NCBI RefSeq assembly: GCF_027257875.1
Contig: NZ_JAPVQY010000024.1
Coordinates: forward strand, 1-64,000
DNA length: 64,000 nucleotides
Source of the DNA: Burkholderia sp. IMCC1007
Lineage (GTDB): Bacteria > Pseudomonadota > Gammaproteobacteria > Burkholderiales > Burkholderiaceae
Direction of reading: 5' to 3'
Shown: positions 6,583-53,446 of the stretch, in pieces
How positions within the stretch are numbered: position 1 is the stretch's first letter
Layout: the number at the start of each line of letters is the position of its first letter
The notes under the pieces: generated by a model
The model's input: the letters and a program-made list of their open reading frames with translations, nothing else
Databases searched by the model: none
What the model was told of the DNA's origin: nothing
Made by a program: the position numbers and the translations under genes

Positions 6583-6822
6583 ATGATGCCGCACGCTCCC
6601 GTATCGAAATCCGAATTCAAGGCTCGCGCCCTCGAATACTTCCGTCTCGTCGAAGCGTCGGGCGAAAGCCTGATCGTCACCGACCATGGCAAGCCGACGC
6701 TGGAAATCCGGCCATACCGCTCGCGCGAAGCCCAGCCGTTGGACATATTGCGCGGCTCGGTCATGCGCTATGACAATCCTCTCGATCCGATTGCGGAAGA
6801 TGATTGGGAGGCGTCGCAGTGA
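6583..6822 (+). CDS. Phd/YefM-family antitoxin
   Basis: 79 residues: VSKSEFKARALEYFRLVEASGESLIVTDHGKPTLEIRPY is the Phd/YefM fold that binds DNA through its N-terminus, and the tail (DNPLDPIAEDDWEA) is the acidic toxin-binding segment. It is followed by a PIN toxin with a GTGA start/stop overlap. Two adjacent ATG codons (6583, 6586) are possible starts. Direct repeats at 6550-6573 probably serve as its operator. Confidence 0.87.
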   Translation: MMPHAPVSKSEFKARALEYFRLVEASGESLIVTDHGKPTLEIRPYRSREAQPLDILRGSVMRYDNPLDPIAEDDWEASQ

Positions 6823-7214
6823 TCGTGCTGGATACACATGCATTGGTGTGGTGGGTGGCAGGCGACCCTTCGCTCAGCAAGAAAGCGCGAAGCGCGATCG
6901 AGCGTGCGCTCGGGGAAGGCACGCTCGCCGCATCCGCGATCTCCGCATGGGAGATTGCCATGCTGGTGCGCAATGACCGCCTCGCGCTGACGATGGACGT
7001 CGACGCATGGCTCGCCACCGTCGCGCAAATCGACGGCATTCGCTTCGTGCCCGTCGATGCCGATATCGCCGCGAAGTCGACCGACCTCCCTGGCACCTTC
7101 CACAAGGATCCGGCCGACCGGATGATCGTCGCCACCGCGCGGCGGCTCGGTGCGCCGCTCGTCACCCGGGACGAGAAGATCCGCGCCTACGCGCACGTCA
7201 AGACGCTCTGGTAA
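6819..7214 (+). CDS. PIN-domain (VapC-like) toxin paired with Phd antitoxin
   Basis: 131 residues from a GTG at 6819 that overlaps the antitoxin stop. It begins IVLDTHALVWWVAG, the DTHALLW subgroup of PIN domains, with further acidic residues in SAWEIAML, KDPADRMIVATA and TRDEKIRAY. It is expected to be a single-strand-specific ribonuclease silenced by the Phd-type partner. The upstream in-frame start at 6804 has no ribosome site and lies inside the antitoxin gene, so the coupled GTG was chosen. Confidence 0.87.
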   Translation: MIVLDTHALVWWVAGDPSLSKKARSAIERALGEGTLAASAISAWEIAMLVRNDRLALTMDVDAWLATVAQIDGIRFVPVDADIAAKSTDLPGTFHKDPADRMIVATARRLGAPLVTRDEKIRAYAHVKTLW

Positions 7215-51904: not shown

Positions 51905-51985
51905 GTCGGCTCTCCGGTCGGATCGGGGCGAAGCAGCAACGATAGCGCGGCGCGAGGTGGTCGACAAGCGGCACACGATTCGACA

Positions 51986-52046
51986 TGTACGACGATCCGT
52001 ACAACAATTTCACCGGCGCTATACTTGTGCGGTTTTGAGTACAAGT
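51986..52046. promoter_or_regulatory. Operator/promoter of the yefM-yoeB module
   Basis: TGTAC (51986-51990) with GTACA (51999-52003), and ACTTGT (52023-52028) with ACAAGT (52041-52046), are two inverted repeats resembling YefM boxes. TATACT (52020-52025) is a good -10 that overlaps the second. The last arm ends 10 bases before the antitoxin ATG. Confidence 0.55.
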
Positions 52047-52056
52047 GAGACAGACC

Positions 52057-52536
52057 ATGCGCACGATCCACTTCTCGGCTGCTCGCGGCAATCTGAAGAC
52101 GGTCATCGATCAGGTCGTCAACGATGCGGACGTGACGCTCATCACGCGTCGCGACGCGCCAAACGCAGTCATCATGTCGCAGGAATACTATGACAGCCTG
52201 ATGGAGACGGTCCATCTGCTCCGCTCGCCGGCGAACGTCGCCCATCTCGAACGCTCGATCGCGCAATTGCGCGATTGCGCAAGGGCAAGACGAAAGCGCA
52301 CAAGCTCGCGGAGGACGATGAATGAGCGTCCGCCGCGAGCTCTTTACTTCCGACGCGCGGGACGACTACGTTTATTGGCAGAGGCAAGACCGCAAGACGC
52401 TCAAGCGCATCAACCGGCTCATTCGCGAAGCGCAGCGGACGCCGTTCGAAGGTATCGGCAAACCCGAAGCGCTGAAGGCCAATCTGTCCGGCTTCTGGTC
52501 GCGCCGCATCGACGATACGAACCGCCTGGTCTATGA
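52057..52536 (+). pseudogene. yefM: yefM antitoxin gene with 8-bp duplication frameshift
   Basis: Residues 1-72 are a normal YefM/Phd antitoxin (MRTIHFSAARGNLKTVIDQV, TLITRRDAPNAVIMSQEYYD, LLRSPANVAHLERSIAQLR). At 52266-52280 ATTGCGC is repeated with an 8-base period. Removing 8 bases gives an 86-residue protein ending KAHKLAEDDE whose TGA at 52323-52325 overlaps the toxin ATG, exactly the normal layout. As sequenced, the frame instead runs on to 52536 through the toxin gene out of frame (159 residues). The DNA-binding half stays intact; the toxin-binding tail is replaced. It could be a true mutation, slippage variation or an assembly error. Confidence 0.85.
52266..52280 (+). repeat. 8-base tandem duplication inside yefM
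   Basis: ATTGCGCG at 52266-52273 followed by ATTGCGC at 52274-52280. It is not a multiple of three and causes the antitoxin frameshift. Confidence 0.9.
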
Positions 52537-52588
52537 AGCGGACGATCTTCAGATCAGCATCGTGTCGTGCCGTTATCACTACGCGTAG
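52322..52588 (+). CDS. yoeB: YoeB-family mRNA interferase toxin
   Basis: 88 residues, very close to E. coli YoeB: DDYVYWQRQDRKTLKRINRL, PFEGIGKPEALKANLSGFWS, RRIDDTNRLVYEA and CRYHYA. The catalytic Glu49, Arg68, His86 and Tyr87 are all present, so the enzyme should cleave mRNA on the ribosome. Its antitoxin partner upstream is frameshifted, which makes an intact toxin surprising. It is translated from the ATG at 52322 that overlaps the ancestral antitoxin stop. Confidence 0.92.
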   Translation: MSVRRELFTSDARDDYVYWQRQDRKTLKRINRLIREAQRTPFEGIGKPEALKANLSGFWSRRIDDTNRLVYEADDLQISIVSCRYHYA

Positions 52589-52822: not shown

Positions 52823-53446
52823 ATGCCCTACCGACTCATCGCGTTCGACTTCGACGGCACGCTTGCCGATTCGCTCGACTGTTTTCTCGCGGCGTTGACG
52901 CAGGCGTCGCGCCTGCACGGCTTTCGCGACGCCACGCCCGAACTTCGCGCCGCGCTGCGCGGGATGTCGGCGCGCGAGATCATCCGTGCGCTCGACGTGC
53001 CGATGTGGAAAGTGCCGCGCGTGACGGTCGACATGCGTCGGCTGATGCGGCCGAACATTGCGCAGGTGAAGCTGTTCCCCGGCGTCGACGATACGTTCGA
53101 TGCGCTCGCCGCGCGCCGAATCCGCATCGCGATCGCGACGTCGAACACCGAGGACATCGTGCGCGACCGGCTCGGGCCGCGCGCGAGCCGCCACGTCGAC
53201 ATCTTCGCGTGCGGCATTTCGCTGTTCGGCAAGGCGCACCGGCTGCGCGCGCTCGTGCGCGAAGCCGGCATGCAGCCTGCCGACGTGCTGTACGTCGGCG
53301 ACGAAATCCGCGATGCCGATGCGGCCCGCCGCGCGGGCATCGCGTTCCTGGGTGTCGCATGGGGCTACACGGCGCCCGACGCATTGCAGTCGCATTGCGC
53401 GACGCCGCTGCTGCCGCGCCTCGACGCGCTGCTCGATCGCGTGTGA
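52823..53446 (+). CDS. HAD-superfamily hydrolase (phosphoglycolate phosphatase-like)
   Basis: 207 residues. Motif I is FDFDGTLADSLD (Asp nucleophile and acid), motif II IAIATSNTED, motif III Lys in GKAHRLRAL and motif IV VLYVGDEIRDADAARRAG. A helical cap lies between motifs I and II. It is therefore a small-molecule phosphatase or related hydrolase in the Gph branch. The ATG at 52823 follows a weak site. The gene stands alone. Confidence 0.87.
   Translation: MPYRLIAFDFDGTLADSLDCFLAALTQASRLHGFRDATPELRAALRGMSAREIIRALDVPMWKVPRVTVDMRRLMRPNIAQVKLFPGVDDTFDALAARRIRIAIATSNTEDIVRDRLGPRASRHVDIFACGISLFGKAHRLRALVREAGMQPADVLYVGDEIRDADAARRAGIAFLGVAWGYTAPDALQSHCATPLLPRLDALLDRV

What the first reader, a model, noticed from the sequence alone, without database searches (positions are those of the whole stretch)
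52057..52588. Frameshifted YefM antitoxin beside an intact YoeB toxin
An 8-base duplication (52266-52280) replaces the toxin-neutralising tail of YefM, yet YoeB keeps Glu49, Arg68, His86 and Tyr87. The DNA-binding half of YefM is unchanged. A cell should not tolerate this unless slippage restores some antitoxin, another antitoxin protects, or repression alone suffices. The repeat could act as a phase-variation switch.
Basis: partly seen in the sequence, partly recalled or inferred. Interest (0 to 1): 0.7.

Follow-up and report, generated by a model that had tools for sequence, protein, structure and literature searches.

The report
Decaying YefM-YoeB toxin-antitoxin locus
A common bacterial toxin-antitoxin gene pair in a Burkholderia genome carries a frame-breaking insertion in the antitoxin gene, most likely because the whole pair is wearing out, which is an ordinary fate for such genes rather than an on/off switch.

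Summary
The frame break is real in the assembly. At 52266-52281 an imperfect 8-base repeat shifts the yefM frame, which then runs on (159 codons in all) through most of yoeB out of frame. yoeB is open and keeps its four catalytic residues. Of 64 other Burkholderia genomes searched, 19 carry the full locus; in all 19 YefM has 86 residues, overlaps yoeB by 4 bases and lacks the extra 8 bases. The longer form is therefore derived and seen in one genome.

The DNA-binding half is not unchanged (D8A, D22N, in none of the 19), and most of the toxin-contact stretch known from E. coli YefM lies before the break.

Best reading: a dispensable chromosomal yefM-yoeB locus in decay. This lineage has more amino-acid changes in the pair than expected (omega 0.159 against 0.037, p=0.009 uncorrected), with no significant excess in the two flanking genes, and has lost an operator half-site kept in 18 of 19 relatives. 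The break also ends the stop/start overlap that may couple toxin to antitoxin translation. Phase variation is unsupported: such repeats are at chance level. A still-working fused antitoxin or an assembly error is not excluded. Interest low.

The parts
51983..52004 (+). upstream operator-like inverted pair (TGTAC ... GTACA), kept
   Evidence: alignment of 20 genus sequences; the E. coli operator core TGTACA is from PMC4803016 (passage)
52020..52047 (+). promoter/operator: -10-like TATACT overlapping a palindrome whose left half reads TGTGC where 18 of 19 relatives have TGTAC; right half GTACAA kept (also in 18 of 19)
52057..52272 (+). yefM, part still in frame (72 codons); PF02604; carries D8A and D22N
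   Evidence: Pfam 70.5 bits over residues 1-69; whole-genome family match 52057-52272; private changes
52266..52281 (+). imperfect period-8 repeat; 8 bases more than all 19 full-length genus relatives; frame break of yefM
52273..52536 (+). out-of-frame extension of the yefM reading frame (87 codons plus stop), basic, predicted mostly without regular structure after about residue 90
   Evidence: ORF list; model (low overall confidence, mean pLDDT 63.1)
52282..52325 (+). former antitoxin tail, no longer in the yefM frame; still ends in a stop overlapping the yoeB start by 4 nt; 52282-52321 is 95% identical to the nearest relative
52303..52341 (+). hairpin with the yoeB Shine-Dalgarno in its stem and the AUG in its loop; most stable of 20 homologues, not conserved in all
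   Evidence: (z -2.60, 4 of 200 shuffles as good)
52322..52588 (+). yoeB toxin gene, open, 88 aa; catalytic residues kept; V6E, W13R, G21R, Q32R, P50A against the closest relatives
   Evidence: TIGR02116 107.7 bits
51461..51976 (-). flanking GNAT acetyltransferase gene, control gene and synteny marker
52823..53446 (+). flanking HAD-family hydrolase gene, control gene and synteny marker

Best explanation
This is a vertically inherited, dispensable chromosomal yefM-yoeB locus in decay. An 8-base insertion put the last codons of yefM out of frame. Shown: the break, its derived state, more amino-acid change in the pair on this lineage than on the rest of the tree, loss of one operator half-site, absence of the pair between the same neighbours in a number of relatives. 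Inferred: selection on the pair had already relaxed and YoeB is weakened or poorly made, so losing the antitoxin tail was survivable. Also inferred: because yefM no longer stops at the yoeB start, ribosomes no longer finish there and re-start on yoeB, and the yoeB ribosome-binding site lies in a hairpin, so toxin output probably fell with the same mutation.
For: 86-aa YefM with 4-nt overlap in 19 of 19 relatives. Branch test on 157 codons of 20 sequences: window omega 0.159 against background 0.037, LRT 6.78, p=0.0092; yoeB alone 0.232 against 0.053, p=0.032. It is the largest LRT when each of 20 terminal branches is tested in turn. Controls, window branch against background: GNAT 0.203 and 0.148, p=0.56; HAD 0.132 and 0.090, p=0.53. 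Changes polarised against sister L002: yoeB 4 nonsynonymous/2 synonymous in the window, 0/2 in L002 (8 unpolarised); yefM N-part 2/3 and 0/1 (5 unpolarised). Operator half TGTAC lost in the window, kept in 18 of 19; the exception, L020, has the second highest LRT. GNAT lies next to HAD with no yefM-yoeB detected in 11 of 30 loci. One YoeB, and no other YefM above cut-off, in the genome. Decay of chromosomal TA loci is described in PMC7167474 (passages) and TA loci whose proteins are not toxic in PMC7280312 (passages).
Against: All four catalytic residues are kept. Omega on the branch is still well below 1 (p=0.00017; yoeB alone p=0.023), so selection acted for most of the branch. p=0.0092 would not survive correction for 20 branches, though this branch was named in advance. 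At the 52 YoeB columns conserved in 90% or more of 120 homologues the window departs at only one (W13R); 74 of the 120 depart at one or more, so by this measure YoeB is not an outlier. R13 occurs in 5 and A50 in 21 of 120, and R13 in two relatives with full-length YefM (L014, L017). L020 has 4 private YoeB changes, the window 3. In P. putida yefM could not be deleted (PMC7280312, passage), so an active YoeB without antitoxin would be a real problem. The hairpin hides the Shine-Dalgarno about as well in some relatives with full-length YefM.
Confidence: 0.58

Rival explanations
1. The frame-shifted protein is still a working antitoxin: it keeps the DNA-binding domain and most of the toxin-contact stretch, so the pair is functional with an odd tail.
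For: The toxin-interaction region is residues 51-89 of E. coli YefM and 39-77 of RelJ (PMC7354431, passage). Through the alignments this is roughly window residues 40-80, of which about 31-33 of 39 lie before the break at 72 (a numbering offset of 9 for E. coli is my inference). The model shows one long helix from 58 to 88. omega is below 1 and catalytic residues are kept.
Against: The last contact residues and the whole acidic end are replaced by a basic extension, mostly without regular structure in a low-confidence model. Private D8A, D22N and the operator change point to relaxed selection.
Confidence: 0.22
2. Assembly or sequencing error: the real genome has the ordinary frame.
For: Draft of 138 contigs; one genome only; 19 of 19 full-length relatives lack the 8 bases.
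Against: The spacer base between the two 7-base copies does not match the base after the second copy, so it is not a simple repeat-copy artefact. The other changes in the pair and the operator are independent of it.
Confidence: 0.1
3. Another antitoxin in the cell neutralises YoeB in trans.
For: Three weak PF02604 matches elsewhere in the genome, one in this window at 6583-6819.
Against: All three are below the Pfam cut-off of 29.8 (22.8-27.6 bits); two sit beside PIN-domain proteins, that is, they look like VapBC-type pairs.
Confidence: 0.05
4. Phase-variable switch: the 8-base repeat expands and contracts and turns the antitoxin on and off.
For: The repeat is tandem-like and out of frame.
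Against: Only two imperfect copies; 7 such repeats in 64 kb against 8.9 expected; no second copy in 19 of 19 relatives. That known contingency loci use many exact copies is recalled, not from a call.
Confidence: 0.03

Closest known systems
YefM-YoeB (Phd/YefM antitoxin with Txe/YoeB toxin), e.g. E. coli, PDB 2a6q
   Same: Gene order, toxin family and catalytic residues, DNA-binding half of the antitoxin, TGTAC-based operator, genus locus with 4-nt overlap
   Different: Antitoxin frame broken after residue 72, so its end and the stop/start overlap are lost; one operator half-site altered; extra amino-acid changes in both proteins
Decaying chromosomal TA loci (E. coli, as reviewed in PMC7167474; non-toxic P. 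putida loci, PMC7280312)
   Same: Conserved chromosomal place, lesions in the genes, absence from a number of relatives
   Different: Here the clearest lesion is in the antitoxin while the toxin frame is still open; the examples in the passages I saw are of lost or changed toxins (a frameshifted YacB, a parE pseudogene; PMC7354431)

Membership tests
YefM-YoeB type II toxin-antitoxin | YoeB-family toxin with catalytic Glu, Arg, His, Tyr | tested here: met
YefM-YoeB type II toxin-antitoxin | full-length YefM antitoxin with toxin-binding end | tested here: not met
   PF02604 met in the N-part (70.5 bits), but YefM equivalog NF008499 only 70 bits against cut-off 121 (full-length relatives were not scored against it); frame broken after residue 72
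YefM-YoeB type II toxin-antitoxin | antitoxin stop overlapping the toxin start (usual layout in this genus) | tested here: not met
   19 of 19 relatives have a 4-nt overlap; the window frame runs to 52536
YefM-YoeB type II toxin-antitoxin | autoregulated operator with paired TGTAC sites | tested here: inconclusive
   one of two sites kept, one half-site lost; binding not testable here
YefM-YoeB type II toxin-antitoxin | toxicity of YoeB and neutralisation by YefM | not testable with these tools
   needs expression
phase-variable (contingency) locus | repeat tract beyond chance | tested here: not met
   7 against a mean of 8.9 (range 2-17) in 50 shuffles
phase-variable (contingency) locus | length variation among strains of the species | not testable with these tools
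   one genome per species held; no second copy in 19 other species
decaying TA locus | derived lesion together with relaxed selection on that lineage | tested here: inconclusive
   lesion derived; omega raised, p=0.009 uncorrected, yet below 1; flanking genes not significantly raised

The most novel reading that the evidence does not exclude
The overlapping stop/start layout of yefM-yoeB is itself a fail-safe: any frame break in the antitoxin tail also stops ribosomes from ending at the toxin start, so the mutation that disarms the antitoxin also mutes the toxin, helped by a hairpin over the yoeB ribosome-binding site that is most stable in this lineage. Antitoxin-first loss would then be survivable.
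Probability: 0.2. Interest if true: 0.5.

Novelty: new member of a known kind. Interest (0 to 1): 0.17.

Why it matters
If true, it is one more example of how chromosomal addiction modules die, with the less usual feature that the antitoxin frame is broken while the toxin frame is still open. Its main use would be as a natural test of whether coupled translation lets a cell survive losing the antitoxin first. It does not show a switch or a new system.

Tried and rejected
Phase variation: rejected on chance counts and lack of a second copy in relatives. Another YefM in trans: only sub-cut-off relatives. First thought that W13R and P50A alone show a dead toxin: withdrawn, since R13 is in 5 and A50 in 21 of 120 homologues, R13 sits beside full-length YefM in two relatives, and the window departs at only 1 of 52 well-conserved columns. 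Conserved coupling hairpin: not conserved across all 20 sequences, so kept only as a lineage feature. Frame-shifted YefM elsewhere: I aligned 23 database proteins with the window ORF, 20 of the 120 listed and 3 further ones of the 120 listed. Most keep the tail, some reading on past it. P0010 (contig of 720 bases) also departs right after residue 72, into an unrelated end, and P0016 (longest contig 1945 bases) departs about there too; both lie on short contigs that I did not pursue, so a break near this place elsewhere is not excluded. PADLOC: no match for either protein. Plasmid records: 4 Burkholderia hits, none covering 80% of the query; of the two opened, L139 (B. cenocepacia) has the pair with the pieces spaced as in the 19 relatives, and L140 (B. 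multivorans) has no yefM-yoeB match between GNAT and HAD. Papers: frameshift + antitoxin + YoeB + Burkholderia gave 3 papers on other subjects, by their titles; other searches are. In those listings (titles and starts of abstracts) I did not see this locus or the fail-safe idea. I saw passages only of PMC3303803, PMC4803016, PMC7354431, PMC7167474 and PMC7280312, and no paper in full; PMC7256200 was not read (one search failed).

Rows dropped: one GNAT codon column, because 8 of 19 relatives have a stop there (168 of 169 used), so the GNAT start used may be too far upstream; L024 left out of the alignment as it appears to be the same contig as L009; only the 9 best candidates per genome were scored.

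Full report
What is there. The window is part of an 8.57 Mb, 138-contig genome of the genus Burkholderia: the nearest named relative of YoeB is from B. catarinensis (94% identity), and the four best listed proteins are named Burkholderia. The species itself is not named by the tools. At 52057 yefM starts; residues 1-69 match PF02604 at 70.5 bits. At 52266-52280 a 7-base word is repeated with period 8, and from there the frame differs from the relatives. The reading frame stays open to 52536, 159 codons from the ATG, running through most of yoeB in another frame. yoeB (52322-52588, 88 aa) is open (PF06769 132.1 bits; TIGR02116 107.7 bits).

Comparison. A DNA search of 65 genus genomes, the window's own included, gave 22 with any match and 20 with a full or near-full match, so 19 of 64 others carry the full locus (the 9 best candidates per genome were scored). 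In all 19 YefM is 86 residues and its stop overlaps the yoeB start by 4 nt; all 19 lack the 8 bases. The broken form is therefore derived and known from one genome; other strains of the species were not available. The pair sits between a GNAT gene and a HAD-hydrolase gene. Of 30 HAD loci examined (the window's own included; 65 of 65 genomes have some HAD match), 15 show the pair at least in part, 11 have GNAT next to HAD with no detectable pair, and 4 show neither GNAT nor the pair in the stretch held. The locus is dispensable in the genus.

More than one change. D8A and D22N in YefM, and V6E, Q32R and P50A in YoeB, are private to the window among 20 sequences. G21R is derived against the sister lineage L002 but its residue is also in L020; W13R also occurs in L014 and L017. 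In the 120 best listed homologues E6 occurs in 0, R13 in 5, R21 in 5, R32 in 3 and A50 in 21, so V6E is the most unusual and the others are tolerated elsewhere. At 52 columns conserved in 90% or more of them the window departs at one; 74 of the 120 depart at one or more, so YoeB is not an outlier by that measure. A codon branch test gives omega 0.159 on the window branch against 0.037 elsewhere (LRT 6.78, p=0.0092), the largest LRT of 20 terminal branches (not significant after correction for 20). omega is still below 1 (p=0.00017). GNAT (0.203 against 0.148, p=0.56) and HAD (0.132 against 0.090, p=0.53) show no significant rise. Upstream, the left half-site of the downstream operator reads TGTGC where 18 of 19 relatives have TGTAC; the exception, L020, has the second highest LRT and 4 private YoeB changes against the window's 3. 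Against relaxed selection as a full story: all four catalytic residues are kept.

What the break does. The toxin-interaction region is residues 51-89 in E. coli YefM and 39-77 in RelJ (PMC7354431, passage). Through this corresponds to roughly window residues 40-80, so about 31-33 of 39 positions lie before the break at 72 (E. coli offset inferred). The model of the ORF as it stands, low in overall confidence (mean pLDDT 63.1), has a helix 58-88, then little regular structure apart from a weak helix 126-139. The second effect is on the toxin: the stop that overlapped the yoeB start is no longer in frame. Overlap is taken as support for translational coupling in a Streptomyces yefM-yoeB (PMC3303803, passage). 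The yoeB ribosome-binding site lies in a hairpin stem, the most stable of 20, but some relatives with full-length YefM (L002, L003, L007) hide it about as well. That toxin output has fallen is inference.

How it most likely works. A locus under weak selection picked up changes in operator, antitoxin and toxin; the 8-base insertion then broke the antitoxin end and uncoupled the toxin. The order of these events is inferred. Survival is explained by a weakened or poorly translated YoeB, by partial function of the fused protein, or both. I put 0.58 on decay, 0.22 on a fused protein that still works, 0.1 on an assembly error, 0.05 on trans protection and 0.03 on a switch. (On rechecking I moved 0.02 from decay to the fused protein, because YoeB is not an outlier at its best conserved columns.)

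Known or new. TA decay on chromosomes is described (PMC7167474, passages), as are TA loci whose proteins are not toxic (PMC7280312, passages); in that study yefM itself could not be deleted in P. putida, which is why tolerance here deserves an explanation. The finding is a new instance of a known kind.

Noticed in passing
window 6583-7214: A VapBC-like pair: a 79-aa protein with a sub-cut-off PhdYefM match (25.2 bits) next to a 131-aa PIN-domain protein (70.5 bits).
   Followed up: partly
L016 (G055), yoeB: A relative with full-length YefM has His86 of YoeB replaced by Arg, so a catalytic residue has been lost while the antitoxin is kept; the toxin may be decaying first there.
   Followed up: no
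L020 (G037): Second lineage with raised omega, private K28E, Q38R, R39P and a change at 54 in YoeB and the same operator half-site altered, with full-length YefM: a possible earlier stage of decay.
   Followed up: partly
P0010 and P0016, database proteins: Two YefM-like proteins on short contigs that depart from the family at or near residue 72; in P0016 YoeB-like residues follow directly. Origin and reality unknown.
   Followed up: no
L105 1435-1722 (G000:C117): A 95-aa weak PhdYefM relative (27.6 bits); I did not look for a partner toxin beyond the ORF list.
   Followed up: partly
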